This document shows, piece after piece, positions 1-56,571 of a stretch of 62,855 nt of DNA. This stretch comes from an uncultured Alphaproteobacteria bacterium (GTDB lineage: Bacteria > Pseudomonadota > Alphaproteobacteria > Micavibrionales > Micavibrionaceae), in assembly GCA_946480475.1 (NCBI GenBank), contig CAMLJM010000015.1:1-62855 (forward strand), written 5' to 3'. A program made the position numbers and the translations under genes. Within the stretch, counting starts at the first letter, position 1. The number at the start of each line of letters is the position of its first letter. The notes beneath the pieces are model-generated. The model had not been told where the DNA came from and did not search any database. It worked only from the letters and a program-made list of their open reading frames with translations.

Positions 1-705
1 GAGTTGGCTGTCTGTAACAAGCTGGCACGTTTCAAATCGCATGATTGCTTGCGGCATTTCGAGCAGGAAGGGGTTCTCCCCCCTGCCCTTACCATCATTA
101 ACGGGCAAGCAAAACTTCTGCTTTCTGATCTGAATATTCAAGTCAGTGAAGATGAACCGCTTTGGAAAGCCTTTGGCTATCACTTCGATAACGATCAAGA
201 ATCCGCTTATGATGCCATCCTGTCATTGACCGATGAGCAACTCGAAGCCTTCCTTGTGTTTCTGGAAGTCTGCGAATTCGGACAGGCTTTCGCGGACAGG
301 CTGGATACCCATGAGGGAAGTCTTTTCAATAAAATTGCTAAAGACCTCGCTGTGGATATGCGCGATTACTGGCGGCCTGATGAAGGGTTTTTGAAACGCC
401 GTAATAAAGTTCAGTTGCAGGCTTTGATGAACGAGTCAGGTGCATCTGCAAAGCTGGCGAGTGCTGCGGAATACAAGAAGGGTGAGTTGGTCAATAGTCT
501 GACCAAGTTTTTCCAGAGCGCAAAGAAATCTAAGAAGCCTACGGATAGCGACCGAAAAGCTAATGAATGGTTGCCGGAAGCCATGAGTTTTCCGGCAATC
601 GACCCTGACCGCAAGGATGAGCCGATGGAGTGCGAGGATTTCGAGGATGAGATTCTCGAAGAAGATGAATGCGCTTTTTCTGACGAGGAAGAAGATGCTG
701 CCTAA
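1..705 (+). CDS. parB: ParB-family partition protein, C-terminal part (gene continues from 61742)
   Basis: This is the last 234 codons of a 587-residue protein whose first 353 codons lie at 61742-62800. The reading frame is continuous across the circle junction, so there is no start codon here. The catalytic and DNA-binding motifs are in the N-terminal part. This half is mostly hydrophilic and helical and ends in a strongly acidic tail (residues DEEEDAA last). It is much longer than a typical 300-residue ParB, so the C-terminal half is an extension of unknown role. A strong terminator follows at 736-771. The family assignment rests on the N-terminal half. Confidence 0.85.
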   Translation, partial: ELAVCNKLARFKSHDCLRHFEQEGVLPPALTIINGQAKLLLSDLNIQVSEDEPLWKAFGYHFDNDQESAYDAILSLTDEQLEAFLVFLEVCEFGQAFADRLDTHEGSLFNKIAKDLAVDMRDYWRPDEGFLKRRNKVQLQALMNESGASAKLASAAEYKKGELVNSLTKFFQSAKKSKKPTDSDRKANEWLPEAMSFPAIDPDRKDEPMECEDFEDEILEEDECAFSDEEEDAA

Positions 706-21100: not shown

Positions 21101-24100
21101 TAATAACCTGGTTATCAACCTTGATGCCGCGTACACCAGCACCATTACTGTTAAAAACTTCTTTACTTCTGGGGATAGCGTAGAACGTCTGTATCTGGAC
21201 AACGATAGCACGGGCTATTTTGATCTTGTCGCGCAGGCTTGGATTCCTGCTAATACGGCTCCTGTCATTAATTCGAATGGGGGTGGCTCTAGCGCTTCTG
21301 TTCAGGTTACCGAAGGTAATACGGCTGTTACAACAGTAGTGGCTACGGACATCGATTTTGGCACAACCCTGACCTACTCAATTTCTGGCGGGGCGGATGC
21401 GGCTAAATTCTCCATTAACAGCAGTACGGGCGCATTGTCATTCATCTCAGCCCCGGATTATAGCAATCCTACAGACGATGACTCTGATAGTGTTTATGAA
21501 GTTGAGGTTTCAGCCTCCGACGGCAGCCTGACGGATACGCAAGCTATAAGCGTTACTGTTCTTGATTTGTCCACGATTAATGGTACCGGTTCTGCGGATA
21601 CCCTGACCGGCACAAGTGCTGCCGATATCATAAGCGGACTTGGTGGTAATGATAATATCAGTGCTGGTGACGGCGATGATCTGATCGAAGGTGGCACTGG
21701 TGATGACACCATAAATGGTGGTAATGGCATTGATACCGTTTCCTATGCGAATGCGTCAGGAACCGTATCCGTCAATATTGGCAGCAACTTTGCGTCTGGT
21801 GCTGATGGTAACGATACGATCAGCAATGTTGAAAACATTATTGGCTCAGCTTATGCCGATAATATCTCCGGTACTGCAGGATCAAACGTCCTGCGTGGTG
21901 GGGCTGGTAATGACCAGTTCTTCCCAGGCGGCGGTGGCGGCGACCATATTTATGGTGAAGATGGCAATGACTATGTGTTGGGATACGCTGGCAATGATTT
22001 TATCGATGGTGGCAGTGGTACAGATGCTGTTGACTACTGGAACATAGGATCTGCTGTTACTGCCAATCTAGTAACAGGTACTACTTCGGGTGGGGCCGGA
22101 AGCGATACGCTGGTCTCTATCGAAAATCTTTATGGCACTTCTTATGCCGACAGCTTTGTAGGCAACGCTTCTGTGAATACTCTTAATGGCGGAGCCGGTA
22201 ACGACTACATTGAAGGGGGAGCTGGTAATGACTCCTTATCAGGAGGCGACGGCATAGATACGCTTGGTTACGCGAATGCCACCTCTGCTGTAACTGTTAA
22301 TCTTACTGCCGGGACTGCTACTGGCGGGGATGGTACGGACACTATCACCGGATTTGAGAATGTCACAGGCTCTGCTTACAATGATACAATCACTGGCAAT
22401 TATATGAACAACGTCATAGATGGCGGCGAGGGTGAGGATAGCTTCGTGGCTAGTACCGGCACGGATTCATATTATGGCGGCTATGGCAGCGATACAGTTG
22501 ATTACTCAGCTATGAGTTACACATCAACGATTGATCTGTCTTCTAATTATGCCACGATAGCAGGAAAGACGGATTATCTGGAAAATATCGAGAATGTCAA
22601 AGGTGGTACGCAGGCGGATAACATCACAGGTGATGGTGCTGCTAATATTCTTGATGGAGGTTCCGGGCATGACACGATCTCTGGCCTGGGTGGTCAGGAC
22701 TACCTGAAAGGTGGCACGGGCAATGATACGCTGACAGGCGGTGATGGCGATGATACCCTCGAAGGCGGAATTGGTTCAGACACCCTTCATGGCGGTGATG
22801 GAAGCGATCGTGCCTATTACACCGGTGCCAGCACCAATTTCATCATTTACCGTGATCATGCCGATTACCTTATCGTCAAGGATTTGGGCAATACCAATGA
22901 TGCATTTGGTTATGGCGGGGACAAAATCTATAATGACATTGAAAGTGTGCAGTTTAGCGATATCACCGTTGATCTGACAACGACGACATTTGCACTGAAT
23001 GGTGATGGCTGGGGTTCATACTCTATAACCCTGACATCCGGAACATCGCAGCCTTACTATGGTTATAATGCGCGCGATATTATCAATGGCTATGCAGGCA
23101 ATGATACTGTTTATGGTTATCTCGGTAATGATGATATTTATGGCAATGATGGCGTAGATACACTCTATGGCGGTGCCGGTAACGATAACCTCTATGGGGG
23201 AAATGGCAACGATACGTTGGACGGTGGTGATGGCGATGATGCCCTTGATGGCGGCGCTGGTACTGCCGATGTTGTCAGCTATGCTTCGGCATCAGCTGCT
23301 GTAATAATCAATCTGACCACGGGTACGGCAACAGGTGCTGGTAATGATACTCTCACAAATATTGAGAATGTTACGGCGTCTGCTTATGCTGATACAATAA
23401 CAACTAATTCGGTCGCTAATGTGATTAATGCGGGCGACGGTGATGATACGATTATTGTAACAGATGACTCTGTTGCTGATACTTATAACGGCGGCAATGG
23501 AATAGACACGCTCAGTTTCGTCAACGCTACAGCCAGCGTATCTCTCAATACAACCTACGTGACGGGAAGCTCGATCAATACTGATTGGCATAGCGGAATC
23601 GAGAACTTCATAGGCACAGCATATAACGACTCTCTGACTGGCACGACAGCGAATAATACGATCTGGGGCGGCGCTGGAAACGACACCATGAATGGCGGAG
23701 ATGGTAACGATACGCTCTATGGTGAAGCTGGTGATGATTACTTTACCGGCGGCGCCGGTGATGACGTCATTGATGGTGGAGCTAATACAGATGCTGTTGA
23801 TTATTCATCGGCAGGATCGGGCATTACTGGAAACTTGGCAACGGGTGTTGTCACAGGCGGCGCAGGCAACGATACTTTAAGTAACATTGAGCGCCTATAT
23901 GGTAGTGCATATGCTGATACATTAACGGGCAGTGCCGCTGCCAATATTATTAATGGCAATAATGGCGATGATATCATAGACGGTGGGGATGGTAACGATA
24001 CGCTAAATGGCGGTAGTAATTCCGATACCGTCAGTTATGTGTCCGCATCAGCTTATGTCACTGTCAGTCTGACTTCCAATACTGCAACAGGAGGTGCTGG

Positions 24101-24866
24101 CAGCGATACGTTATCCGGATTTGAGAATATTACCGGTTCTGCTTATGGCGATAGTCTGACAGGTGACTGGCAGAACAATGTCATTAATGGTGGAGATGGT
24201 AATGATATCATTACGGGCTTAGGGGGCTCTGACGCCATGAACGGCGGTGCTGGAGACGATACATTCGTTAGTGGCAATGCTAGTGATGTAATGGACGGGG
24301 GTGATGGTATAGATACCCTTAACTACGTTGCTGACTACGCAGTCACCGTTAACCTCTCGGCAGGAACTACAACAGGCAATAGTGGAAACCACACTCATAG
24401 CAATATCGAAAATGTGAAAGGTTCTATCTACAATGATACGATTACCGGTAGTAGCGGTGCTAATGCCTTAAGAGGACATTCTGGCAACGATACGCTCTAT
24501 GGCGGTGATGGTAATGACACTCTGTATGGTGAAGCAGGCACAGACACTCTGAATGGGGGTGCTGGAGCGGATACATTCGTATTTGAATCTGCTAGTGCCT
24601 TTAGTAATGTAGATACAGTTTCAGACTTCACAACAGGAGATGGGGATGCCATCAATCTTGTTGATGTCTTAAGTCTGTATGATCCTATGAACGATGCCAT
24701 TACTGATTTTGTTCAGATGAGCACAAGTGGTAGCGATACACATTTGTCTGTGGACAGGGATGGCACCGGTACCACTTACGGCTGGACACAAATTGCGACA
24801 ATTACAGGCGTAACAGGTCTGACAGATGAGGCAGCTCTAGTTACAAACGGAAACTTGATAGTTTAA
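12132..24866 (+). CDS. Giant RTX protein, 4,244 aa, type I-secreted adhesin/toxin-like
   Basis: Residues 1-270 are unique. First RTX blocks (GGxGxDxLxGxxGxD nonapeptides) occupy about 270-900. A calcium-binding dockerin/EF-hand-like segment follows at about 905-1020 ([26 protein letters not shown]). A non-repeat helical part covers 1070-1390. Nine haemolysin-related modules ending in xLTIxxQF lie between about 1450 and 3000, a cadherin-like domain at 3040-3147, and dense RTX repeats fill 2080-3030 and 3150-4130. The C-terminus ([19 protein letters not shown] onward) is a type I secretion target of the VCA0849 kind. Such proteins fold in calcium outside the cell, as adhesins, surface layers or toxins. 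No lipase, protease or pore-forming domain is evident, and no type I exporter genes are on the plasmid. Confidence 0.92.
18370..21000 (+). repeat. Dense RTX nonapeptide array, first block
   Basis: Near-continuous coding repeats of the GGxGNDxLx type recur at about 27-base spacing, with codons for GNDT and GGAGND reappearing throughout. They form calcium-binding beta-rolls in the product. Their DNA similarity makes this a likely site of recombination or assembly collapse. Confidence 0.85.
21580..24590 (+). repeat. Second RTX array with nine higher-order units
   Basis: About every 240-290 bases the RTX repeats are broken by a 55-residue unit of the form D-x-[VL]-x-Y ... V-x-[VI]-x-L ... GxGxDTL-xx-[IF]-EN ... 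GSAYAD-x-[IL]-xG. Copies begin near 21730, 22025, 22257, 22494, 23270, 23505, 23790, 24027 and 24312. They look like products of tandem duplication that have since diverged. Confidence 0.75.
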
Positions 24867-36027: not shown

Positions 36028-36423
36028 TTATGCTTCTTCTTTCTTAACCATCGTTTCTATGAGATGGATCACCGCATCTTTTTGAGAACGACTTTCAAGT
36101 GCATCTAGTAGATTCAGAACATGACGCCGATATTCGTATTCGTTATTGCTGATCGGCAATCTGTTTCCGAAGGGATCATCTGTGAAAAGTAATAGATAGT
36201 TGATATCTACATCTAGATACTCTGCGATTTTCTTGAGCATTGTAGCGCTGACGCGGTTGATCCCGGACTCATATTTGCCGAGTTGCTGATAGCTGCTATC
36301 CATTGCAGCGGCAAGATCAACTTTGGTTTTGTTTCTCAGTACACGTGCTTTATATATCCGTGTGCCAATCTCAACATCTTCCTTTGTCACCCTCTTTCCG
36401 GGCGCCTTCATCTGGTTAGTCAT
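36028..36423 (-). CDS. XRE-family regulator upstream of the virB operon
   Basis: The 131-residue product has an N-terminal Cro/cI helix-turn-helix (about 15-70: RIYKARVLRNKTKVDLAAAM, QLGKYESGINRVSATMLKKI) and a short C-terminal region. Such compact XRE proteins repress their own promoter and neighbouring operons. It lies 142 bases upstream of virB2 on the same strand, so it is a good candidate for control of the transfer genes. A hairpin at 36474-36507 lies in its upstream region. Confidence 0.8.
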   Translation of the reverse strand: MTNQMKAPGKRVTKEDVEIGTRIYKARVLRNKTKVDLAAAMDSSYQQLGKYESGINRVSATMLKKIAEYLDVDINYLLLFTDDPFGNRLPISNNEYEYRRHVLNLLDALESRSQKDAVIHLIETMVKKEEA

Positions 36424-36885: not shown

Positions 36886-37005
36886 TTTGCAAACTTACCC
36901 TCTTGTTTCCCCAGAGCAAGTTTGATAAAGTGCAAATCAATTGCAACATTTGCAAACTATATTCGCTTTAACATAAAGTCAATGAAAAAATTGCATAATA
37001 TGCAA
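36886..37005. promoter_or_regulatory. TTTGCAAA operator cluster upstream of the CDPS cassette
   Basis: Two copies of TTTGCAAAC (from 36886 and 36949) and a TTGCAA (36941) precede a perfect 15-bp dyad TTGCATAATATGCAA (36991-37005). All lie within 210 bases upstream of the regulator gene at 37090 in an AT-rich stretch. They fit binding sites for that XRE regulator, or a shared divergent control region with the peptide at 36851. Confidence 0.5.
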
Positions 37006-37089: not shown

Positions 37090-37740
37090 GTGCCTGACCC
37101 TCATTCCAGACTACGATCTCAAATACGGGCGGCGAGAGAACTTCTAATGCTTAAGCAGGTGGAGTTGGCTGAGAACTTGGGAATATCACTTTCCAAGCTT
37201 TCTCGCGTTGAGAACGGCGATACCAAGAGTGGCGATATACTTTTAGAAGTGAAGCATGGTCTTGAGAAATTGGGCGTTCGCTTCCTTGCTAATGGTGTTG
37301 AACTTGTTCAAAGCCATTTAGAAATTATTGAGGGGGAAGGGTGCTATCAGAAGCTACTTGATGATGTCTTTCAGACCCTTATCAAGTCTGAAGAGAAAAC
37401 TTTATACATCATGTTTGCCTCCGATAGAGTTTCACCACCAGAGGTCAACTATCGATATCGGCTTATGCGAAATGCTGGCATTACTATGAAGCAGCTTATT
37501 GAAGAAGGCGATACTTATATTCTTGGTGAATTAGAAGAGTATCGCTCAATACCTTCGAGATATTTTAGTAATATTGTCACTCTAGTTTATGCTGATAAGG
37601 TCGCCCAGGTAAACGGTTCGGAAAGCCTTATTACTATTCAAAACGATCATCAGTTGGCCATACATGAGAAGGGGTTATTTTCTCACTTTTGGGATACGGG
37701 CAAAAAGCCTGAATTCTCTAATGCTCCGGAGCGATTCTAA
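37090..37740 (+). CDS. XRE regulator with C-terminal sensor domain, partner of CDPS
   Basis: The 216-residue product has a Cro/cI helix-turn-helix at about 8-60 (QVELAENLGISLSKLSRVEN) and a 150-residue C-terminal domain. That domain has alternating strands and helices (KTLYIMFASDRVSPPEVNYR, FSNIVTLVYADKVAQVNG, HEKGLFSHFWDTGKKPE) and resembles the PLD-like effector domains of TrmB-type regulators, so it may sense a small ligand. The GTG at 37090 follows GGAG at proper spacing; a TTG at 37078 has no ribosome site. It ends one base before the CDPS gene, so the two are co-transcribed. Ligand identity is unknown. Confidence 0.7.
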   Translation: MPDPHSRLRSQIRAARELLMLKQVELAENLGISLSKLSRVENGDTKSGDILLEVKHGLEKLGVRFLANGVELVQSHLEIIEGEGCYQKLLDDVFQTLIKSEEKTLYIMFASDRVSPPEVNYRYRLMRNAGITMKQLIEEGDTYILGELEEYRSIPSRYFSNIVTLVYADKVAQVNGSESLITIQNDHQLAIHEKGLFSHFWDTGKKPEFSNAPERF

Positions 37741-37741
37741 A

Positions 37742-38509
37742 ATGAGATCTGTTCAATATCCAGCACAGACAGGATTCTACGCTGTCAAAGTCAAATCAGA
37801 GCAAAGCTTTGATAATTGGCAGCAATTTAATACCGCAAGATTGCAGATTAGTGTGGGACAAGAATATCATGAAGACCATAAGATGCTTGCTACTCTTGAA
37901 TGGTTGAAGCCTCGGTTCTCTGAGATTCATATCTGCATTAATGATACATTACAGCGATTTAACATCATGTTCGAGAAGGGGCTCTCTCTAGAACTGGCAT
38001 CTATGGTTTGTGAAAAAGCGGGAAGAGAGTGGTACGGAAGATATGAAAGCGATATTAAAAAGCTTGCCAATTCCAAAGTCCATTACTGGTGTGAATGGCT
38101 TTCCCATCCGCAATATAGTGAGATTTATGAAAGTATAATAAACCTTTATAAAGGCAATGCTCAATTTTCTCATCTAGTTAATCAGAATATTAACGAGATC
38201 TGGAATAGGCGAGTGACTAAGAATCCTACACTTTATACAAGTGCAAGGTATTCTGAGTTTTTTGATCTATCTAAGGCCTATTTGCTGGAAGAGATCTCTG
38301 TTTTTTCTCTTATGTACGAGCATAACAACGCTATTGATATATACCCGGGAACGACAATTTTTGCGGCTACTGTCTTACAAGGCACTAGCTTGCCTGGAGC
38401 ACCTGTAGGTTTAGGCAAGGGGCATTTTTGTAGAATCGATTTTACTAAAAGAACTAACCCTGCAATCGGTATTGCGGTCGTGCAATATAAACCAAAGCTG
38501 GCTTCGTAG
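37742..38509 (+). CDS. Probable tRNA-dependent cyclodipeptide synthase (XYP subfamily)
   Basis: The 255-residue product fits the CDPS family, which joins two aminoacyl groups taken from charged tRNAs into a 2,5-diketopiperazine. The catalytic Ser appears as S37 in LQISVGQEYHE, matching Ser37 of AlbC. Position 40 is Gln, not Asn. The active-site pair Y180-x3-E184 lies in AYLLEEISVF (AlbC Tyr178/Glu182). Y201-P202 in DIYPG mark the XYP rather than NYH subfamily. The middle part (CINDTLQRFN, AGREWYGRYESDI, VHYWCEWLSHP) also fits the family pattern. No oxidase, methyltransferase or P450 for tailoring is adjacent. The start has GGAGCG upstream and is coupled to the regulator. Specificity cannot be read from the sequence. 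Confidence 0.82.
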   Translation: MRSVQYPAQTGFYAVKVKSEQSFDNWQQFNTARLQISVGQEYHEDHKMLATLEWLKPRFSEIHICINDTLQRFNIMFEKGLSLELASMVCEKAGREWYGRYESDIKKLANSKVHYWCEWLSHPQYSEIYESIINLYKGNAQFSHLVNQNINEIWNRRVTKNPTLYTSARYSEFFDLSKAYLLEEISVFSLMYEHNNAIDIYPGTTIFAATVLQGTSLPGAPVGLGKGHFCRIDFTKRTNPAIGIAVVQYKPKLAS

Positions 38510-41816: not shown

Positions 41817-42059
41817 ATGACAACAATGAATGTGTCTTTACCTGATCAGATGAAAGACTGGATAGAGAACCGCATAAAGGCAGGGCAATACCACAATGCG
41901 AGCGAATATGTCCGTGACCTTATCCGCAAAGATCAAGCTGATGCTGAGAAGGCGATGGCGTTTCGTGCGGCCATAGAATACGGACGAAGCAGCGGCATAG
42001 AGGATCGCAGTTTTAACAAAATCGTTGCCGATGCAAAATCAAAGGCTAAGCGATCCTAG
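41817..42059 (+). CDS. parD: ParD-family antitoxin
   Basis: The 80-residue product has the ribbon-helix-helix start MTTMNVSLPDQMKDWIENRI and the downstream GQYHNASEYVRDLIRKD typical of ParD/CopG antitoxins, then a toxin-binding tail. TTGAGGAGAAC upstream is a strong ribosome site. It is paired with the toxin gene two bases downstream. Confidence 0.9.
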   Translation: MTTMNVSLPDQMKDWIENRIKAGQYHNASEYVRDLIRKDQADAEKAMAFRAAIEYGRSSGIEDRSFNKIVADAKSKAKRS

Positions 42060-42061
42060 AT

Positions 42062-42355
42062 ATGAAATTCAAAATCTCGAAGGCGGCTTCTCAGGACATT
42101 GAGAATATTTATCTTTATGGCTTTCTCACTTTTGGGGAAAATCAGGCTGATACTTATATGGCTGCCTTGAAAGATCTCTTTGATCTACTGTGTTCAAATC
42201 CAGAAATCGGTCGCCTTGATGCTAGAGTCAATCCAGCAGTAAGGCGTTTTGATTTTGAAAGTCATGTAATTTTCTATGATGCGGAAGAGGACCATATTCT
42301 TGTTGTGAGAGTTCTTCACAAATCTATGGATTTTGTTAAGCATCTCTCAGCTTAA
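42062..42355 (+). CDS. parE: ParE-family toxin
   Basis: The 97-residue product has the RelE/ParE fold pattern (ISKAASQDIENIYLYGFLTFG, then DLLCSNPEIGRLDARVNPAVRRF and VIFYDAEEDHILVVRVLHKSMD). ParE toxins poison DNA gyrase. It is coupled to parD and likely acts as a plasmid addiction module. An AT-only dyad AAAATAG/CTATTTT (42354-42370) overlaps its stop and may be a weak terminator. Confidence 0.88.
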   Translation: MKFKISKAASQDIENIYLYGFLTFGENQADTYMAALKDLFDLLCSNPEIGRLDARVNPAVRRFDFESHVIFYDAEEDHILVVRVLHKSMDFVKHLSA

Positions 42356-42644: not shown

Positions 42645-44309
42645 TTATGCGGCTTCTAACTCCCAGGCCTTGGACATAACTTCGAGCAAGTCTTTCTGGC
42701 GTTTTGTTAGGGTATCCTGGTTCCAAGTATCTGTGTTCAGAACTTGAGTAGTTAAGGCGTAGGAAGAGACATTATTTTTGCCTACGAAATACTTCTCTTT
42801 TTTTGTTTTAAAGTCATAGTTGCTTGCCGCTGAATTCCTTTGCTTATTCAAAGGAACAAGGTTGGAAATTTTGTGAACCCAATTTCTATGTATTTCTGCA
42901 TCGGGCCAAATCTTTGCCCACTCGCTATCTGGGTTAATGGTTTGAGGTAAGACATGTTCAACCGTTAACTTACTTGCATCGTAATAAGCGGCTTGATCCG
43001 CTATGAAGGAGTCCAATCGAAGAATGATGTAATTTCTTCTGCGCGCTGTCATGTCATAAACATTTCCATCAAGAGCAATTTTCATTTCCTGTTTTTCTAT
43101 GTCTTTTAACTCAACATGCTGTGCGTCTGAAAGGACTTCAGCGTAACGGGTAATGCGTTCATTGATGTTTTTTGCGCATACGTGTAGATATGCTGCTAAA
43201 CGCTCTAGCTTCGTGAAAAACCATAGAGTGCGTTCTGAATCGTTCTTGTTCTGAGATAAGAAAAAAATAGCTGGCGGAATCCAGTCTGAATTATCAATGT
43301 GATTAAGCCATTTCAAACAATCACTAATTTCCTCAGCATTTGCAGACGAGACATACTCTTTTCTTTTAATTATTGATAAAGATTCGGCATAAGGCTCAAG
43401 AATGTTTTCAATTAACTTTATTGGAGAGCTTTCTTTAGATAAAACGTGCTCACGGAATTCTTGAAGGATCGAATACTTTGGTTTGTCTTTAGCATAAATC
43501 ATCCTGACATAAGAGAACAACTCATTGAATGGCTCACGGCCTAGATTAACTTCCATATCTTCCCAACGTTCACTGTAAGCGTCTTTTTGCGCGCCCCCTT
43601 CTATTTTGCCAATAGTATCAGCCTTTATTATATCTGTAGATTGTAGGCTTAGTCCCCGCGTATTCATCACAGAGAAAACACGGAAAGCAGATTCTTGCGT
43701 TGGTGTGGAAACGGCAACAAGATAGCAGCGTTGCAATATGAAGCTTGCAAAGCTGCCCAAAGATTTCATGTCGTCCCCGAATTTCTCATTCAGGCGAGAG
43801 CAAATGGAGTAGCTGTTTTTGCGAATATTTTTTTGCGCTTCATTGGAAAGACTTTCTGGGTCAATAGCCAGAAGGCTATTGAAATCAAGAGACTGTACAT
43901 ATTTTTCAAAGAAATCTTTATCACGATCTCTTAAGGTCAAGCGTGGCTTTGGCTGCAAATTTTCAAAGGGGTTACCAGGCTCTCTGATATATTTTTTAAG
44001 AAGGTTTTGTTCATCAGTGGTCATTTTTGAAGCTATTGCAGCTAATAAAATCGTCAGAGTTGTCAGGCGTTGTTGGCCATCAATTACTTCAGCTCGAGCC
44101 TTATTTTCTTCTTTGATAAGAACAATGCTTCCGAGAAAATATCCCTCATCTGTGGCAGATTTATAAAAATCATATAGGTCATCAAATAAGTCATATGCTT
44201 GAACAATGCTCCAAGCATATGGACGCTGATATGACGGGATAGTGTACTCAAAATCGGAACTGAAAATTTTAGAAATTGGGTGTTCTGCGGCACTAATTTT
44301 TTTTGACAT
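42645..44309 (-). CDS. GmrSD-like DUF262/DUF1524 restriction protein
   Basis: The 554-residue protein joins a DUF262 (ParB/Srx-like NTPase) domain, with FLGSIVLI and VIDGQQRLTTLTILLAAI near 60-92, to a C-terminal DUF1524 HNH-type nuclease. The latter has LTVEHVLPQTINPDSEWAK, then ISNLVPLNKQRNSAASNYDF. This is the single-chain layout of GmrSD, a type IV enzyme that cuts sugar-modified phage DNA using NTP. All key motifs are present. It is divergent from the SIR2 gene across a 294-base gap, in which I see only AT-rich promoter-like sequence. Confidence 0.85.
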   Translation of the reverse strand: MSKKISAAEHPISKIFSSDFEYTIPSYQRPYAWSIVQAYDLFDDLYDFYKSATDEGYFLGSIVLIKEENKARAEVIDGQQRLTTLTILLAAIASKMTTDEQNLLKKYIREPGNPFENLQPKPRLTLRDRDKDFFEKYVQSLDFNSLLAIDPESLSNEAQKNIRKNSYSICSRLNEKFGDDMKSLGSFASFILQRCYLVAVSTPTQESAFRVFSVMNTRGLSLQSTDIIKADTIGKIEGGAQKDAYSERWEDMEVNLGREPFNELFSYVRMIYAKDKPKYSILQEFREHVLSKESSPIKLIENILEPYAESLSIIKRKEYVSSANAEEISDCLKWLNHIDNSDWIPPAIFFLSQNKNDSERTLWFFTKLERLAAYLHVCAKNINERITRYAEVLSDAQHVELKDIEKQEMKIALDGNVYDMTARRRNYIILRLDSFIADQAAYYDASKLTVEHVLPQTINPDSEWAKIWPDAEIHRNWVHKISNLVPLNKQRNSAASNYDFKTKKEKYFVGKNNVSSYALTTQVLNTDTWNQDTLTKRQKDLLEVMSKAWELEAA

Positions 44310-44603
44310 ATTTGAAACTATCCTATTTTCTTTTCGAAAGTCCGACTTAAATAGGCGACTTTAAATTATAGTTATTTTAGACCAAATTCAGCAAATTATG
44401 ATTTATATGGCAGAATAAGATCTTCATGATTCTGTTAGAATTTTTGAGTATTTCTCTACAACATGCTCCGGAACATTCTCAAACTTGTGAGGATCAAGGC
44501 CCCGGTCTGTCCATGAGAATAAACCGAGTATATATTGGAATAATAGAATCGAAAATACAATGAGTTTACGAAATTTGCTGCTGGGGCTTTTAAGAGGAAG
44601 ATT
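44310..44603. other. Divergent promoter region between GmrSD-like and SIR2 genes
   Basis: This AT-rich non-coding region must contain the promoters of both flanking genes. I do not see a clear dyad or a small gene in it. The SIR2 gene is preceded by AGGAAG at 44596. Confidence 0.35.
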
Positions 44604-47600
44604 ATGCGCTTTATTGAAAATGGCCCTATTTTACCAGATGACTTATTAAATGCCCAAGATGAGGGGCAAGTTATCTTCTTTTGCGGAGCGGGAGTTTCAA
44701 TAGCTGATGCTGCACTTCCAAGCTTCTCCGGTTTAGCCGAAGCCGTTCTGAAGAAACTTGGTGCAACTGAGGACAGTCCTGCTAAGAAACTTCTTATAGC
44801 ATCACAGGAATTAGAAAATACACACGATTTAAGAGGCGTACTATCAGCAGATCAAATTTTTGGGAAGCTTTCTAGAAGCTTCGACTCTCACGATATTAAT
44901 CGTGTGGTTGCTGAAAGCCTCAGACCACGCAAGAAAAGCAGTCTTCCCGCACATAAAACCATTTTAAAGTTGGCACGGCTTAAAGGGGGACAAACAAGAT
45001 TAGTAACCACCAACTTTGACCTGCTTTTTGAAGAGGCATGTAAAAACTCAATAGAATCTCGAACGCGATCAAACCTCCCTAGGATAGAATACTCTGATAA
45101 CGATTGGGGTATTATTCATCTGCATGGGAGAGTAAAGCCGGATTATTCTGGCCCAGATTCAGACGGTTTTGTACTTTCGAGCGCCGAGTTTGGAGATGCT
45201 TATTTAGCACAAGGTTGGGCAAGAAGCTTTGTTCAGAACATTTTAGATCGCTACATAGCAGTTTTCATTGGCTACTCAGCAGACGATCCTCCAATTCGAT
45301 ATTTGTTGGAGGGGCTACAACAAACTAAATCATTCAAGAATAAACTATATGCCTTCCAAGCTGAAAATGATGATGAAGCCGTTGCACAATGGGATGATAA
45401 AGGCGTTGAATCTATTATTTATGAATTAGGAGACAATAACGATCATAGTCCGTTGTGGAATACCCTTGAAGCATGGGCTGCACGATCAAAAGATCCTACA
45501 GCATGGAAACAGAAGGTCTTAAAACGGGCAAAAAAAGGCCCCACTAAGCTCTTGCCTCATGAAAGAGGAATGGTCGCACACTTAGTTAAGTCTTTGACAG
45601 GGGCTAGAGCTTTTGCACAGGAAACGCCAGCAATACCTGCAGAGTGGCTTTGCGTATTCGATGAATCTATTAGGCTAAAACAACCTGAAAAAAACGATCC
45701 TTTTTTCTCAGAAGAAAAAATTATAAACCCATATCAGTTATACTCTTTAGATGATGATCCTCCTCCCTCAGGAAGAAATGAGACATATAGTCCAGTACCA
45801 ATAGAAACCTGGAGTGCCTTCAGGCTAGATAAAAAGGATCTGGATTCTGTTGATGATAAAAATTTATCTTCTATAAGCGGATTCCAAGCCAGCACAACAT
45901 CTGCACTAGTGCCGCGCTTAAGCTACATAACACAATGGATAGGACAAGTTTCTCATCAAAGAATCGCCATCTGGTGGGCTGGGCAGCAAAGAGCATTGCA
46001 TCCAACCCTAATAAAGAACGTTCTTTATAAAGCTTCCAGCGACAAAGATGGCAAATTAACAAAAGAAGCAAAAATTGCTTGGAATATTATACTTGAGCTT
46101 AATAGCTCTTCGGAAAGAGAAAAACATGATGGGTATGAATTTCTGATCCGCGTGAAATCATTAGGATGGAATACTACTACAGCAAGAGAATATGTAAGCC
46201 TTTTTTCTCCATTTCTTCATAAAGGAACGCTTTACCGCTCGATTCCTAGGGACAATCGAGAAAAATTTGAAGCTCGTGCTTTTGTTAAGGCGGATATTAG
46301 ATATCCAGAAGGTATGAACGATGTCCTTATACCGGATGAATATCTTCCAAAGATAATTAATGGTCTTCGCTTCAACATAGAGAAGGCTGTCGATATGAAA
46401 TTGGATTATTCTTACTGGCTCGATCTCTGCTCAATTGAACCTGAGGACGATGATGATGATGAACAACGCTATGAGAGAAGAAGCGATATCTCGGGATATG
46501 TGCTACATTTTGTTTCTCTCTACAAAAGGCTCGTTCAGCTAGATATAAAAGCCGCAAAACAAGAATATAAATCGTGGAGATATGATCCTATCTTTATAAG
46601 ACTGCGTATATGGGCTTGCGGACAAGATGGGATAACAGACGAAACTGAATTTATGAAGGAAATCTTATCTTTAGAAGGTGAGGATTTCTGGTCTTTTAAA
46701 GGGGAAAGAGACTTATTGTTATGCTTGAAAAAAAATTGGAGCCGTCTTTCTGAAAACAACCGAAGTCTTATAGAAACAAAGATTATGGAGGGGCCGCCTA
46801 GGCCAAAAAAAATATCGCAGCAAGAACATGCTAGCCGTTCGGCCCATGGCAGATTGAATAGGCTTCATTGGTTAAATGACAACGGATGTCCTTTGATCCT
46901 TGATTTGGATGCAGTTACAACGGCATTGCAAGCAGATGATCCAGATTGGAAACCAGAATATGCAAGAAAGGCCGCTGAGAGTAATGACGGGCGCAGTGGC
47001 TGGGTGAAGACCGATACCGACTGGACTCTGCTGAAAAATACACCCTTATCCGAAATCCTATCTAAATCTGAAAATACGAAAGGTCGCGACTACTCTCTAT
47101 TGGTCGAATACGCCCCATTCTCAGGTTTATGTGATGATGCTCCATTAAGAGCAATAGGCGCATTATCTCTGGAGTTAAAAACGGACAATTTCCGTGAAAA
47201 ATTTTGGGAAACATTCCTATCTAGAGATAAACGTAAGGATGATTCTTTACGCCTGAAACTTCTTATCGGTGGCCGGATATCTCAAATTCCAAACCATAAT
47301 TTTAAAGAAATTCTGCTAACGGCATCTAGATGGTACGAAAAGGTTGGGCCAGAGTTGAGACAAGCTTACCCTGACCTGTTCCATAGACTATGGGATAAAT
47401 TCATCGAAACTATAGCGGCAAATGAGGAGTCTTCTGCCTCTGCCTTAGTTCGGCAAAAAGGGAAAGACATTGATTGGACAATGGAAGCCATTAATTCACC
47501 CTCTGGTAATCTTGCCCAACTACACATGACAGATCCTAGTAAGGACAGACATAAGAATGGCAAAGGATACCCTAAAGATTGGCTTAAAGGAATTAATCAA

Positions 47601-48425
47601 CTATTAGCACTGCCCGGCGATCCTCATAGGTACGCAATGGTTATCTTCTCTTTTAACCTATCTTGGTTTTACAGTATCGACCCTAAATGGACATCGTCTC
47701 ACATTCTCAAAGTATTAGAGTCAGAAGACTCTAATAGCTTAGATAGAGAAGCGATATGGGCTGGCTTTATGTGGGGAGCTAAAATTCCCCAAGCTGATTT
47801 GTTTATGAGACTAAAGCCCCTCTTATTAAGTATGGCTCATGATACACCTGCGGAACGTAAAGTTCGTCACACTGAGATATTGGCAGGATTACTTCTGGCT
47901 GGTTGGGGATCTAAAGATAGTGAGAAGAAGAGATATATATCGGATGAAGAGTTTAGAAATGTCTTATTAAACTCTGAAGATAGCTTCAGAACGCAAGTTC
48001 TATGGAACTTAGAGAAGTGGTCAGGCGGTAAAAAACTACAATGGGATAAAAAAATAATTCCGTTCTTAAAGCATGTTTGGCCTAAGCATAAAAAGGTTAG
48101 AACTGCCAAAGCCTCTGCAAGATTGTGTGATATCGCCCTTGCGCAGGAAACTAATTTCCCCGCGGTTAGCAAGCTTGTATCTCAACTTGTATCTAAAATT
48201 AGCAACGAACACTTTTATCTCCCAGAAATGAAAAGATCGGGAAATGATCTGGCATCAAAATATCCGGAAGAATTATTAGATCTTTTATATGCAATTCTTC
48301 CAGAGAGACCTGAGAGATGGCCCTATGGAACACAAGAAGCATTAAAAGGCATAGAAATATCTATGCCGCAGCTACTAAATGATCCTCGGTTGATTGAGTT
48401 GAAATCTAGGCTTAACGATTCATGA
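44604..48425 (+). CDS. Large SIR2-domain anti-phage protein, 1,273 aa
   Basis: The N-terminal 270 residues are a SIR2-like NAD-binding domain: FFCGAGVSIADAALPSF near 28-44, TTNFDLLFEEA near 134, the catalytic-type His in IIHLHGRVKP near 170, and FIGYSADDPPIRYLL near 216. The other 1,000 residues are helical and AT-rich in DNA, with no motif I can name. Large SIR2 proteins of this design are anti-phage NAD-depleting enzymes; length and layout recall Dsr-type or DUF4020-type proteins. It is a single gene, so it may act alone. Base use is more AT-rich than the plasmid backbone, which suggests transfer. Confidence 0.82.
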   Translation: MRFIENGPILPDDLLNAQDEGQVIFFCGAGVSIADAALPSFSGLAEAVLKKLGATEDSPAKKLLIASQELENTHDLRGVLSADQIFGKLSRSFDSHDINRVVAESLRPRKKSSLPAHKTILKLARLKGGQTRLVTTNFDLLFEEACKNSIESRTRSNLPRIEYSDNDWGIIHLHGRVKPDYSGPDSDGFVLSSAEFGDAYLAQGWARSFVQNILDRYIAVFIGYSADDPPIRYLLEGLQQTKSFKNKLYAFQAENDDEAVAQWDDKGVESIIYELGDNNDHSPLWNTLEAWAARSKDPTAWKQKVLKRAKKGPTKLLPHERGMVAHLVKSLTGARAFAQETPAIPAEWLCVFDESIRLKQPEKNDPFFSEEKIINPYQLYSLDDDPPPSGRNETYSPVPIETWSAFRLDKKDLDSVDDKNLSSISGFQASTTSALVPRLSYITQWIGQVSHQRIAIWWAGQQRALHPTLIKNVLYKASSDKDGKLTKEAKIAWNIILELNSSSEREKHDGYEFLIRVKSLGWNTTTAREYVSLFSPFLHKGTLYRSIPRDNREKFEARAFVKADIRYPEGMNDVLIPDEYLPKIINGLRFNIEKAVDMKLDYSYWLDLCSIEPEDDDDDEQRYERRSDISGYVLHFVSLYKRLVQLDIKAAKQEYKSWRYDPIFIRLRIWACGQDGITDETEFMKEILSLEGEDFWSFKGERDLLLCLKKNWSRLSENNRSLIETKIMEGPPRPKKISQQEHASRSAHGRLNRLHWLNDNGCPLILDLDAVTTALQADDPDWKPEYARKAAESNDGRSGWVKTDTDWTLLKNTPLSEILSKSENTKGRDYSLLVEYAPFSGLCDDAPLRAIGALSLELKTDNFREKFWETFLSRDKRKDDSLRLKLLIGGRISQIPNHNFKEILLTASRWYEKVGPELRQAYPDLFHRLWDKFIETIAANEESSASALVRQKGKDIDWTMEAINSPSGNLAQLHMTDPSKDRHKNGKGYPKDWLKGINQLLALPGDPHRYAMVIFSFNLSWFYSIDPKWTSSHILKVLESEDSNSLDREAIWAGFMWGAKIPQADLFMRLKPLLLSMAHDTPAERKVRHTEILAGLLLAGWGSKDSEKKRYISDEEFRNVLLNSEDSFRTQVLWNLEKWSGGKKLQWDKKIIPFLKHVWPKHKKVRTAKASARLCDIALAQETNFPAVSKLVSQLVSKISNEHFYLPEMKRSGNDLASKYPEELLDLLYAILPERPERWPYGTQEALKGIEISMPQLLNDPRLIELKSRLNDS

Positions 48426-48459
48426 GCATGTTTAGTGCCTATGAAACTCTTATAATAAG

Positions 48460-49641
48460 CTATCCTCGCTCTACTATCTTTCCGGCCTTTGCCTCATAGC
48501 AGAAATTCACGATTGAGCCGAATTTAATTTTCTCTACTGCTTCATCAATGATGAATAGTGGGACCAGGAACCACTCGCGTGGAACTATAGGGTTTCCAAA
48601 GCGATCCTTGATTTCAATATTTAACTTGGCTGGTTCAAAAAATCTATGAATCAGATTTTCAAGTTTCACGCGGTTAATATTGGATAGTTTATAGGTAGCG
48701 ACAACCTCAACATCCGCCATTAGGAATGTCGGATCAAGTTTGGCGTTAGCTATGCGCCTATCTACATCATTACCAGTAACGCCAATTTTATGGACGACCT
48801 CCCTATGCTCCTTAATCAGGGGGTGGTCTGACTTGCTTCTTAATACATAAATTGTTCCACTTTCTAAATCACCCTCTTCTGCTTCATCAGAGAATAGCGG
48901 CCCCGCCGATGGGTCTGTTATTCTCCGTCCGGCTTCGTCTTTATATAAAGCCCTCTGGAGCGACCGCATAAGCAAGTCGCTTTCTGTTCCGTTATCATAG
49001 ATGATGCGAAGACGGGCATCTGTTGCCCCATTAGGTGCTTTGATAACTTCACCCATTTCAGCTACATAGACTTTCTGCCCTCCTAGGATGAAAAACTCTC
49101 CTTGTTTAATCTGGGCATCTTCTTTGAAACGGCGGCTTTGTCGAACGCCTGATTTCAGATCTTCCTGTATCTGCATGAAGAGAGGCTTAAACTTGGCAAA
49201 GTCTAAACAGGGAGCGCGTTTCGCTATTTCCTCAGCTGCCTTGATTTCGGCGCGCGTGCGAACATGGGTCAACTTGGTAATGTCATTATTGCCAGTATTC
49301 AGTGCGCCAAGCTCTGCTAAAATCTCATCATCATCAAGGTCATCAGACAGATCATTCTTGACAGTAGGCTGTCCTTCTAAAAGGCCGTGCTTATCCAGTC
49401 CTGCTAACACAGAGCTGCATTCTTCGCTGGAACGGATTTTATCAAGCCGCACGGCATAAAGGCGCTCAAAAATATCATTGCCCTCACCTTGTGCCGGAGG
49501 GCGGCCATGCTGTTCAAAAAACCGCTCTATATCTTCAAACCCAGCAATGATCCGTTCTTCACGCGGGGAGGGTGCTGAGGGATCTTTTTTTGCGGTGTGG
49601 AAATCACCTAGTTCATCATAGAGTTCGTCAAGTTCTTTCAT
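48460..49641 (-). CDS. GIY-YIG nuclease of the T5orf172/MUG113 type
   Basis: From the ATG at 49641 (after GAGGGGCG) the product is 393 residues. The C-terminal third is a GIY-YIG domain: GTIYVLRSKSD, then VHKIGVTGNDVDRRIANA with the catalytic Arg, KLENLIHRFF with the conserved Glu, and the trailing NPIVPREWFLVPL block. The first 250 residues are helical and acidic. The start overlaps the helicase stop by 14 bases, so it is the last gene of the five-gene operon and the best candidate for its DNA-cutting subunit. An extension to 49815 lies inside the helicase and is rejected. Confidence 0.85.
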   Translation of the reverse strand: MKELDELYDELGDFHTAKKDPSAPSPREERIIAGFEDIERFFEQHGRPPAQGEGNDIFERLYAVRLDKIRSSEECSSVLAGLDKHGLLEGQPTVKNDLSDDLDDDEILAELGALNTGNNDITKLTHVRTRAEIKAAEEIAKRAPCLDFAKFKPLFMQIQEDLKSGVRQSRRFKEDAQIKQGEFFILGGQKVYVAEMGEVIKAPNGATDARLRIIYDNGTESDLLMRSLQRALYKDEAGRRITDPSAGPLFSDEAEEGDLESGTIYVLRSKSDHPLIKEHREVVHKIGVTGNDVDRRIANAKLDPTFLMADVEVVATYKLSNINRVKLENLIHRFFEPAKLNIEIKDRFGNPIVPREWFLVPLFIIDEAVEKIKFGSIVNFCYEAKAGKIVERG

Positions 49642-51688
49642 AACGCCCCTCATCTTTGTAACGGACAAAGGCGGCAGCGCCTTCAGCCATGCGCTTCTCC
49701 CACGGGTCTTGAGAGTCGAGTGCAGGCAAACGGCCACGCTCTTTTTTAAATTGAACAGCACGGGCAGCAAGCCCCTTGGCTTCTTCTGGTGATAGCTTAG
49801 TTTTTTTGCCAGCAATCACGTTAGCGACCTGCTTCAGACTATCCTCATTCATTGCCTTAGATAAAATGGCATAGGCCTCACCGAACGGATTGATCCTGTC
49901 AATCAGGTCAATATCGAGGTCTTTCACATCCATCGAAAACTTGCGAACGCCATCAATCAGGGCGGTGTTGCCAGCTTTCTGCATTTCAGGGCTGTTCAGC
50001 ATTTCCTTTGCTTTTTGCGTCAGGTTCAAGGCTGCAACAGCATGTTGGCGCACGGCTTCCTGATCTTCATCATCCAGCTCGGGGTATTTGTCCTTAATGA
50101 TCTTGCCCATGCGGACTTGGGTTAGCTCTTCAGGGATCATTTCAGAGTCGAACAAGCCGCGTTCAAGTGCGGTCTTGTCTTGAACGAAGGCTGCAATGAC
50201 TTCATTCAAATCCTCTTGGCAAATGCGAGAGGCTTCTTTGCTTTTGGGTTCAGCCAGACCTTTAATTTCAATTTGGAACTGGCCAGTGCTTTGATTGAAG
50301 CCGATATTCTCCTTATTGGGGTCATACCCCCCTTCCCCATAGTCAAAACCCTCAATCGGGCCATTATTAGGATTTTTCGGCATGAAATTGAATTTGGGCG
50401 CAAGAACCTGTTCCATCAACAGACTTGCGGCAATGGCTTTCAGCGTATCGTTCACAGCATCCGTCACTTTTTCTTCGGAAGCATCCGGTTCAGCAATCAA
50501 ATTAGTAAAGCGCGAACGGGTCTTGCCTTTGGCATCCCGTGTGGCACGGCCAATAATCTGGATAATTTCGGTCAAGCTGGAGCGATAACCGATGGTCAGG
50601 GCGTGTTCACACCAAATCCAGTCAAATCCTTCCTTGGCCATGCCTAGCGCGATAATAACATCCACATGGTCACGATTATCTTTTTGGGTAGGGTCTTTCA
50701 GCGAGGTCAAAACCTTGGAATGCCGCTCAGGGCCATCATCCACAAGGTCTGCCACTTTCAGAATGCGGCCATCTGCGCGCTCAACAAGATCAAAGCCCGT
50801 GGCGGGGTCTTTGCCTTTCCATGCCCCCATCGTGTCCATTATTTCACTGACTTCAGTAGTTTTACCGCGCTGCGTGCTTTCTCGGGAATTCACGTTCGGG
50901 ATATGGATGATGGTTTTTAAGTTCGTATCGAGAACATCCGCGATTTCGTCAATATAAGAGCCAGAATAGAAATAATAGCCAATATCAAGCTGCTTTAGAT
51001 ACTGATAGCCATTGAGTTGCTCATAGTAGGTATAGGTGACAGGCTCAAATTTTTCTTCATCCTGTGACAGCAAGACAGGCACGGCATCGCCACGGAAATA
51101 TGATCCTGTCATGGCGAGAATATGCGTCTTATCCCGCGCAATCAGCTTGGAGATAATGCCTCCGAGAATATTGTCTTCAGCGGCGCTCACATGATGGAAT
51201 TCATCCACGGCAATCAGGCAATCATCAAAGGCTTCAATGCCAAAACGATCCACCGAGAAGCGGAACGTGGCATGGGTGCAAACCAGAACGCGATCAGGGC
51301 TATCAAGAAAGACTTTAACGGAGCCAACCTTACCACCGTTATCATCCCCCGGCGCATTGCACAAGTTCCATTGCGGAGCCACTTCCCAATCTGCCCAAAA
51401 GCCGAATTTAGAAAGCGGCTCGTCATTAAAGCTGGAGCCGATGGATTTTTCCGGTACAACGATAATCGCCTTTTTCAGTCCTTGGTTATACAGCTTATCC
51501 AACGCGATAAACATCAAGGCGCGGCTTTTGCCAGAGGCAGGTGGCGATTTAATCAGCAGATATTGTTCCCCGCGCTTTTCATAGGCGCGTTCCTGCATGA
51601 CACGCATTCCCATTTCATTTGCCTTGGTCGAACTACCATTGGAAGCGTATTTAACGGAAACGGAAGGGATGGATTTAATGTCTGTCAT
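49628..51688 (-). CDS. DEAD/DEAH-box helicase of the methyltransferase operon
   Basis: The 686-residue protein has Walker A LLIKSPPASGKSRALMF near 50, the DEAH-type box LIAVDEFHHVSA near 160, AMTGSYFRGDAVPV (motif III) and the C-terminal QIIGRATRDAKGKTRSRF (motif VI). It is a superfamily 2 translocase like those of type I and III restriction systems. It overlaps the ATPase gene upstream (ATGA) and the nuclease gene downstream. Confidence 0.9.
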   Translation of the reverse strand: MTDIKSIPSVSVKYASNGSSTKANEMGMRVMQERAYEKRGEQYLLIKSPPASGKSRALMFIALDKLYNQGLKKAIIVVPEKSIGSSFNDEPLSKFGFWADWEVAPQWNLCNAPGDDNGGKVGSVKVFLDSPDRVLVCTHATFRFSVDRFGIEAFDDCLIAVDEFHHVSAAEDNILGGIISKLIARDKTHILAMTGSYFRGDAVPVLLSQDEEKFEPVTYTYYEQLNGYQYLKQLDIGYYFYSGSYIDEIADVLDTNLKTIIHIPNVNSRESTQRGKTTEVSEIMDTMGAWKGKDPATGFDLVERADGRILKVADLVDDGPERHSKVLTSLKDPTQKDNRDHVDVIIALGMAKEGFDWIWCEHALTIGYRSSLTEIIQIIGRATRDAKGKTRSRFTNLIAEPDASEEKVTDAVNDTLKAIAASLLMEQVLAPKFNFMPKNPNNGPIEGFDYGEGGYDPNKENIGFNQSTGQFQIEIKGLAEPKSKEASRICQEDLNEVIAAFVQDKTALERGLFDSEMIPEELTQVRMGKIIKDKYPELDDEDQEAVRQHAVAALNLTQKAKEMLNSPEMQKAGNTALIDGVRKFSMDVKDLDIDLIDRINPFGEAYAILSKAMNEDSLKQVANVIAGKKTKLSPEEAKGLAARAVQFKKERGRLPALDSQDPWEKRMAEGAAAFVRYKDEGRYERT

Positions 51689-56018: not shown

Positions 56019-56037
56019 AGAATTTACTTTTACCCGA

Positions 56038-56571
56038 TTATGAAGCTTTTGAGAATTTGAAGGGCCACCAGGATTTCTTGGAGGTTTGCTGCTGCTGCAG
56101 TTCAAGAAGCGTTTTGACGGCGGTTTCCATCTCGGAAAAGCGTTTTATCTGTTCCTCTTCCCTGTCGGCATGTTTTTCTGCGGAAGTGCGCTGATCGGTC
56201 AGCTGGGCTGTTACCTTCCCTACGACCTCCTGCTCTTTCTTGAGCAGTTCCTGCAGATTTTCGATCTGTTCTGATAGCTGCCGCCTCTCCCTCTCCCGCT
56301 CAATCTCTGACGTCTTCAGTCTCTCCCGAAGAACGGCAACCTCCGTTACCAGATCTGGATTGTTGGCAGTCAGCTTTGATGCTTTAGCGGCTGCAAGTTG
56401 GTCCGGAGGCGTTACCTTATCGCCGTAGACGCGCACAAGCTCGGACACATCAATTTTAGGCCGTTTGGTTTTAGCATCAATTACGGAAATGCTCTTCTCT
56501 CTTATATGTGCATAGAGAGTGGATCTCGTAATTCCAACCATTTTTGCTGCTTCTGAAAGGGAAACCTGCAT
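56038..56571 (-). CDS. Helix-turn-helix protein with long coiled coil, first gene of the operon
   Basis: The 177-residue product has an excisionase/MerR-like helix-turn-helix (VSLSEAAKMVGITRSTLYAH, then a wing to about 50) and a long coiled coil from about 75 to 160 (LRERLKTSEIERERERRQLS). It ends in a Trp-Trp-Pro-Phe motif and a basic tail. Plasmid proteins of this type bind DNA and often regulate replication or partition genes. It lies between the origin and the methyltransferase, so it may belong to the replication region, to the defence operon as its regulator, or to both. Confidence 0.65.
   Translation of the reverse strand: MQVSLSEAAKMVGITRSTLYAHIREKSISVIDAKTKRPKIDVSELVRVYGDKVTPPDQLAAAKASKLTANNPDLVTEVAVLRERLKTSEIERERERRQLSEQIENLQELLKKEQEVVGKVTAQLTDQRTSAEKHADREEEQIKRFSEMETAVKTLLELQQQQTSKKSWWPFKFSKAS

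What the first reader, a model, noticed from the sequence alone, without database searches (positions are those of the whole stretch)
37090..38509. Sensor-type XRE regulator plus cyclodipeptide synthase as plasmid cargo
The 255-residue protein has Ser37, Gln40, Tyr180/Glu184 and Tyr201-Pro202 at almost the same positions as the AlbC catalytic residues, which points to an XYP-type CDPS. It is translationally coupled to a regulator with a C-terminal ligand-binding-like domain, and no tailoring enzymes are nearby. A self-contained two-gene circuit, in which the regulator might sense the cyclodipeptide, would be a new kind of plasmid signalling or competition module.
Basis: partly seen in the sequence, partly recalled or inferred. 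Interest (0 to 1): 0.78.

Follow-up and report, generated by a model that had tools for sequence, protein, structure and literature searches.

The report
Plasmid-borne regulator and cyclodipeptide-synthase pair
A circular bacterial plasmid carries a two-gene unit, a DNA-binding sensor protein joined to a likely cyclic-dipeptide-making enzyme, and the same pair recurs on other bacterial and phage-like DNA, so it may be a compact small-molecule circuit that has not been described before.

The parts
36887..37005 (.). Candidate operator: array of TTGCA/TGCAA words (9 in the 250 bp before the regulator start)
   Evidence: Dinucleotide shuffles average 2.38 words, 0 of 1000 reach 9; the aligned core recurs upstream of the L001 and L002 pairs; the only other cluster of 4 or more words in 90 bp on the plasmid is at 43731, inside a gene
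37090..37740 (+). XRE-PLD regulator, 216 aa (HTH residues about 8-60; PLD-fold sensor domain residues about 74-209)
37742..38509 (+). XYP-type cyclodipeptide synthase, 255 aa (alternative in-frame ATG at 37721)
36028..36423 (-). Small divergent XRE protein (131 aa) between the pair and virB2
   Evidence: HTH_3 50 bits; weak relatives lie beside the pair in L006 and L011
38513..39208 (-). VirB1-like transglycosylase, convergent to the CDPS gene
   Evidence: Pfam SLT 106.7 bits
25206..35987 (-). VirD4/VirB11-VirB2 conjugation gene cluster next to the pair
   Evidence: Pfam T4SS-DNA_transf, T2SSE, TrbI, CagX, VirB8, TrbL, TrbC; VirB4 homologues
1..55 (+). 55-nt repeat identical to 62801-62855: the record is a closed circle

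Best explanation
The two genes form a self-contained, mobile, autoregulated one-component circuit. The XRE domain binds the TGCAA array in its own promoter. The C-terminal PLD-fold domain, which lacks the catalytic HKD motif and resembles the TrmB sugar sensor, binds a small amino-acid-type ligand, most likely the cyclodipeptide that the downstream enzyme makes from two aminoacyl-tRNAs, and sets the expression of the two-gene operon. The cyclodipeptide is used unmodified. Shown by computation: the CDPS fold and active site, the sensor fold, the recurring pair, the co-divergence of sensor and CDPS, the operator-like array. Inferred: enzyme activity, binding to the array, direction of regulation, ligand identity.
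For: CDPS identity. Sensor fold; HKD pattern absent in 86 of 87 regulators. 26 pairs among 89 unique regulators. In a class survey of 385 genomes, 11 CDPS hits: 7 directly behind the regulator, 1 more with the regulator cut by the contig end, 3 without; leaving out the two seed genomes, 5 of 8. The 26 CDPS-coupled regulators lie in one group of 28 rows, SH-aLRT 95. Distances over 26 pairs: PLD-CDPS r 0.69, partial given HTH 0.685, 0 of 2000 permutations; HTH-CDPS 0.14, partial given PLD -0.05, 1300 of 2000; over all 26 pairs, 53-column subsamples of the PLD domain do not fall below 0.44, so length alone does not explain it. Operator array. No close same-strand tailoring gene in the 25 pairs with room after the CDPS.
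Against: No wet evidence. The PLD domain lies between HTH and CDPS in gene order, so swapping of the HTH segment could give the same correlations without ligand matching. In the 15-member clade the margin is smaller (PLD 0.54, subsample minimum 0.30, HTH 0.22). Seven pairs of related regulators with EgtD-like methyltransferases show no such correlation (PLD 0.12, HTH 0.22), so co-divergence is not a rule of the wider family, though n is small. Related regulators precede other enzymes, so the ligand could be a general amino-acid cue. The score is under Pfam's CDPS cut-off (18 against 27). Two regulators inside the group (L129, L132) have no CDPS behind them, and one counted pair (L017) has a shortened regulator of 173 aa with stops in its wider frame. 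L002's word count is only 37 of 1000 against shuffles. Position 35 of the CDPS varies widely among pairs, so no single product is predicted.
Confidence: 0.5

Rival explanations
1. Local metabolic switch: the regulator senses a substrate-side or stress cue (an amino acid, dipeptide or host metabolite), as XRE-cupin regulators of Pseudomonas do, and the CDPS makes an effector molecule (competition, host interaction, osmolyte) that the regulator itself does not sense.
For: XRE-cupin regulators are local repressors of neighbouring enzymes, with dipeptides and polyamines as known signals (PMC7901475, passages). Related XRE-PLD regulators precede unrelated single enzymes: EgtD-like methyltransferase 8, GNAT 5, formyltransferase-like 3, LPG-synthase-type 3, and one each of YaaA, aminotransferase, 2-hydroxyacid dehydrogenase and another methyltransferase.
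Against: In the CDPS group the partner is kept (26 of 28, the other 2 without a partner found), and only the sensor domain co-diverges with the CDPS, which a shared general cue would not predict.
Confidence: 0.3
2. Toxin-antitoxin or abortive-infection unit: the CDPS drains aminoacyl-tRNA and the regulator restrains it until triggered.
For: The pair sits on a plasmid and on integrase-bearing DNA (L011, L050); several partner families (CDPS, LPG-type transferase, GNAT, formyltransferase-like) contain members that use aminoacyl-tRNA (general knowledge); sensor-CDPS co-divergence also fits protein-protein contact.
Against: No PADLOC model matches the CDPS. CDPSs are characterised by expression in E. 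coli (PMC5816076, passages). The 130-residue PLD domain is a ligand-sensor fold, not a short neutralising tail (inference). Partners such as EgtD-like methyltransferases and YaaA are not known to attack tRNA (general knowledge).
Confidence: 0.12
3. Hitchhiking: the two genes are neighbours by operon drift only, with no functional link.
For: CDPSs of other clades lack this regulator: none was found in 33 of the 48 genome-scan loci, as far as the contigs reach.
Against: 8 of 11 CDPS hits in 385 genomes adjoin a regulator matched in only 22 of those genomes; the pair recurs on this plasmid, on viral contigs and on genome contigs.
Confidence: 0.03

Closest known systems
XYP-type CDPSs: Nbra-CDPS (5MLQ), Fdum-CDPS (5OCD), Rgry-CDPS (5MLP)
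   Different: 18-24% identity; P1-pocket positions that correspond to AlbC 33 and 35 (residue numbers from PMC5816076; my mapping through) are Arg33 and Gln35, a pair that I did not see among the P1 motifs printed in the passages read (part of a table); dedicated XRE-PLD regulator; no tailoring genes beside it
XRE-cupin regulators of Pseudomonas (ErfA, PsdR, PauR)
   Same: XRE domain plus C-terminal ligand sensor, local control of a neighbouring enzyme gene, several paralogues per genome with different partners (PMC7901475, passages)
   Different: Sensor is a PLD fold, not a cupin; here the enzyme gene directly follows and often overlaps the regulator gene
TrmB and TrmBL2 of archaea
   Same: PLD-fold domain in a transcription regulator or chromatin protein
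   Different: Different DNA-binding domain (general knowledge); about 6-15% identity; TrmB's domain binds sugar (PDB title)
PchR (YvmB) and the yvmC-cypX pulcherriminic-acid genes of Bacillus subtilis
   Same: A regulator of CDPS gene expression (PMC4992311, search listing and start of abstract only)
   Different: MarR-like regulator; tailoring enzyme CypX present
LuxI/LuxR pairs (general knowledge, no call)
   Same: One-enzyme synthase beside a cognate one-component regulator
   Different: Unrelated proteins; diffusible signal and reception not shown here

Membership tests
Cyclodipeptide synthase, XYP subfamily | CDPS fold (class-I aaRS-like) | tested here: met
Cyclodipeptide synthase, XYP subfamily | Catalytic Ser, Tyr, Glu and cyclising Tyr | tested here: met
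   Ser37, Tyr180, Glu184, Tyr201 by sequence alignment; 3D superposition of side chains not measured
Cyclodipeptide synthase, XYP subfamily | X at 40, Tyr-Pro at 202-203 (AlbC numbering) | tested here: met
   Gln40, Tyr201-Pro202; rule from passages of PMC5935735
Cyclodipeptide synthase, XYP subfamily | Curated profile cut-offs | tested here: inconclusive
   NCBIfam TIGR04539 57 against 45, met; Pfam PF16715 18 against 27, not met
Cyclodipeptide synthase, XYP subfamily | Makes a cyclodipeptide from aminoacyl-tRNAs | not testable with these tools
   Needs expression and LC-MS
XRE-type regulator | HTH_3 domain | tested here: met
   32.3 bits against 23
PLD-fold, TrmB-like sensor domain | PLD fold | tested here: met
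Catalytic PLD superfamily enzyme | HKD motif | tested here: not met
   HxKxxxxD absent in 86 of 87 regulators of the set, the window's included; the one hit is on L170
LuxI/LuxR-like signalling pair | Product is released and bound by the regulator | not testable with these tools
   Only indirect: co-divergence
Type II toxin-antitoxin pair | Second gene toxic, first gene neutralises it | not testable with these tools
   No PADLOC model hit for the CDPS

The most novel reading that the evidence does not exclude
XRE-PLD regulators are receptors of a family of exchangeable two-gene communication units in which a single enzyme makes an amino-acid-derived signal: CDPS, EgtD-like methyltransferase, LPG-synthase-type transferase, formyltransferase-like or GNAT. 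Plasmids and temperate phages carry the cyclodipeptide version, which on this plasmid sits between virB1 and virB2 and on phage-like contig L050 lies about 0.8 kb from an integrase and 0.4 kb from an endolysin, so that it could let mobile elements count each other, as arbitrium peptides do for phages.
Probability: 0.15. Interest if true: 0.92.

Novelty: new variant of a known kind. Interest (0 to 1): 0.7.

Why it matters
CDPSs are known mainly from biosynthetic clusters with tailoring enzymes, and what plain cyclodipeptides do for bacteria is an open question. A two-gene unit with a dedicated sensor that co-diverges with the enzyme gives a direct assay: purify the regulator, offer it the product of its own CDPS, and read out binding or promoter activity. 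If it responds, cyclodipeptides are genuine intracellular or intercellular signals and the XRE-PLD family gives ready-made biosensors. The wider family, with other single enzymes behind the same kind of regulator, would then be a source of further unknown signals.

Tried and rejected
Single-sequence scan of genome contigs found nothing; the alignment scan then gave 48 loci. No CDPS match in 50,697 phage records; only four Endohaliclona plasmid records at 27% identity; no regulator match in the plasmid records. No tRNA and no Rfam family at gathering threshold in the window. Promoter and terminator scan no better than shuffles. Clusters of the operator word were sought over the whole plasmid and none was found before the virB genes other than the array itself, so direct control of conjugation is not supported, although the array lies in the intergenic region shared with the divergent XRE-virB genes. 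Product prediction from pocket residues was given up: position 35 varies among pairs. Toxin-antitoxin and chance-neighbour readings are kept as rivals. Equal longest-contig lengths tie 10 of the 30 regulator hits to a CDPS hit; this is indirect and was not counted. L006 is filed under Flavobacteriales but is a 3.7-kb contig with an ArdC-like gene, so its host is doubtful. The correlation test was repeated on 7 EgtD-like pairs and failed there. Trees are quick IQ-TREE runs with many weak branches. The spacings use the start codon nearest the regulator stop, so they are approximate. Paper searches were too broad to be informative: the 20 papers listed do not hold the term 'cyclodipeptide synthase'.

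Full report

2. The carrier. The last 55 bases of the window repeat the first 55, and dropping one copy gives an open 610-aa frame across the junction, so the record is a complete circle of 62,800 bp; the part of that frame at the window's end has ParB_N and HTH_ParB domains. The plasmid carries RepC, ArdC, a DUF3363 protein with sub-threshold relaxase matches, and VirB/VirD4 genes. VirB4's matches among the 5000 plasmid records kept are all under 60% identical, and the 25 rows listed are alphaproteobacterial by their names. The pair lies between a VirB1-like transglycosylase (convergent, 3 nt away) and a small XRE gene followed by virB2.

4. The pair is a recurrent unit. A word-based CDPS scan of the species-genome collection gave 48 loci: 15 of 48 have the regulator directly upstream, 11 of the 12 best-ranked. 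The single viral CDPS locus (L049) has the regulator before it; of 49 viral loci found with the regulator, the only near-full-length match, L050, has a CDPS behind it. L050 carries an integrase and an endolysin, L011 an integrase beside a tRNA-Gly, L049 a RusA-like resolvase. L010 has a conjugative coupling protein just upstream, and L009 and L012 hold weaker VirD4 relatives; L001, L003 and L005 have housekeeping neighbours such as DHQ synthase and shikimate kinase. With further genome searches I hold 89 unique regulators; 26 are followed by a CDPS (window 1, genome scan 15, viral 2, other genome searches 8), 17 with overlapping genes and 9 with exactly 14 nt. One of the 26, L017, has a shortened regulator. 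In a survey of 385 genomes of the class of G001, 22 have a regulator match at E 1e-15 (4 of them over part of the model only) and 10 have a CDPS match at E 1e-6 (11 hits). Of these hits 7 are directly behind the regulator, one more has the regulator cut by the contig end, and 3 have none, one of them a 97-aa fragment; without the two seed genomes, 5 of 8. In the same survey only 4 of 40 regulators from non-seed genomes precede a CDPS. Of the 26 pairs, one (L112) has no room after the CDPS; in the other 25 the only same-strand frames of at least 90 aa within 60 nt are an RsmB-like rRNA methyltransferase (L002) and a Gp49-like protein (L126), neither a known tailoring enzyme.

5. Phylogeny. The 26 CDPS-coupled regulators fall in a group of 28 of 87 rows (SH-aLRT 95; two of the 89 were dropped for low score), whose other two members have no CDPS. 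In a tree of 60 CDPSs the label 'coupled' needs 6 changes against 19.3 in shuffles; 17 coupled rows lie in one group of 19 and 6 in a group of 7, two elsewhere, while 30 CDPSs of Legionella, Photorhabdus, Pseudomonas, actinobacteria and others form an all-solo group (support 81). Two rows labelled solo are not truly so: L109 is the same gene as coupled L019, and L193 has its regulator cut off by the contig end. L004 (Marichromatium) lies inside the coupled group but lacks the regulator.

6. Sensor and enzyme co-diverge. Over 26 pairs, p-distances of PLD domain and CDPS correlate at 0.69, HTH and CDPS at 0.14-0.15, HTH and PLD at 0.26-0.27. Partial PLD-CDPS given HTH is 0.685 (0 of 2000 permutations), HTH-CDPS given PLD is -0.05 (1300 of 2000). 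The two halves of the CDPS correlate at 0.67; PLD subsamples of the HTH's length average 0.62 (minimum 0.45; 0.44 with BLOSUM distances). The pattern holds in the 15-member clade, with a smaller margin (PLD 0.54-0.63, subsample minimum 0.30-0.38, HTH 0.19-0.22), and without five truncated or odd pairs (PLD 0.71-0.73, HTH 0.07-0.10). This is what a sensor matched to the enzyme's product predicts, but HTH swapping or protein contact would give it too. Seven EgtD-like pairs of the wider family show no correlation (PLD 0.12, HTH 0.22).

7. Operator. The 250 bp before the regulator hold 9 TGCAA/TTGCA words (shuffle mean 2.38, 0 of 1000 reach it); L001 holds 6 (1 of 1000) and L002 5 (37 of 1000). 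A core of the form TGCAA..TTGCA..TG.A at about -170 to -135 aligns in all three. On the plasmid the only other cluster of 4 or more words in 90 bp is at 43731, inside the DUF262-like gene. The regulator therefore probably controls chiefly its own operon; activator or repressor is open.

8. The wider family. The 12 genomes searched hold 1-7 matches each. Other coupled partners are EgtD-like Methyltransf_33 (7 by Pfam, 1 by BLAST), GNAT (5, one just under cut-off), formyltransferase-like (2 by Pfam, 1 by BLAST), LPG_synthase_C (2 by Pfam, 1 by BLAST), and single cases of YaaA, aminotransferase, 2-hydroxyacid dehydrogenase and another methyltransferase. The remaining 38 of 87 have no coupled gene found, or one that I did not name. 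Several of these families act on amino acids or aminoacyl-tRNA (general knowledge), which suggests that the regulators serve one-enzyme small-molecule units in general.

9. Literature. Full-text searches for 'cyclodipeptide synthase' with XRE (1 paper, a Pseudomonas genome report), with helix-turn-helix (1 paper, PchR/YvmB) and with prophage (17 papers, none with such a title) list no such pair (listings only). The global CDPS survey PMC5767969 (section 9 read; passages) names PAS sensors near CDPSs and suggests quorum sensing, but no XRE regulator in what I read. PMC2922099 (passages) describes other CDPS operons; the terms HTH and phage do not occur in its main text. The library lacks most subscription journals.

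10. Verdict. An XYP-type CDPS with a dedicated XRE-PLD regulator, as a recurrent unit on this plasmid, on phage-like contigs and on bacterial genome contigs, is well supported. Product sensing is the best-supported mechanism at about even odds. Signalling between cells or mobile elements is possible and untested.

Noticed in passing
window 42645-56105: Defence-rich stretch: DUF262/Orf5-like protein, Dsr1-like SIR2 protein, AriA-like ATPase (PADLOC) and an MmeI-like restriction-modification protein.
   Followed up: partly
window 12132-24866: Giant 4244-aa open frame; its first 1666 residues carry RTX calcium-binding repeats; a homologue lies near the CDPS pair in L012.
   Followed up: partly
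window 41817-42355: ParD/ParE-type toxin-antitoxin pair.
   Followed up: yes
L123, L143, L164, L165, L175, L176, L182 (and L162): Related XRE-PLD regulators directly precede EgtD-like Methyltransf_33 enzymes, a second recurrent pairing of the same regulator family.
   Followed up: partly
L135, L149, L155: Related regulators precede proteins of the LPG_synthase_C family (two by Pfam, L155 by BLAST).
   Followed up: partly
L019 6433-8313: CDPS fused to about 380 further residues without a Pfam match, with a class-I (W/Y) tRNA-synthetase gene convergent to it.
   Followed up: partly
L197 3866-6506 (Endohaliclona plasmid MK748464.1): A distant CDPS on a symbiont plasmid is followed directly by a putative sensor histidine kinase: another CDPS-sensor neighbourhood of a different kind.
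   Followed up: no
genomes G003, G005, G007, G009: Two or three different regulator-CDPS pairs in one genome.
   Followed up: partly
L010 5293-8826: Conjugative coupling-protein gene directly upstream of a chromosome-sized contig's regulator-CDPS pair, perhaps an integrated conjugative element.
   Followed up: no
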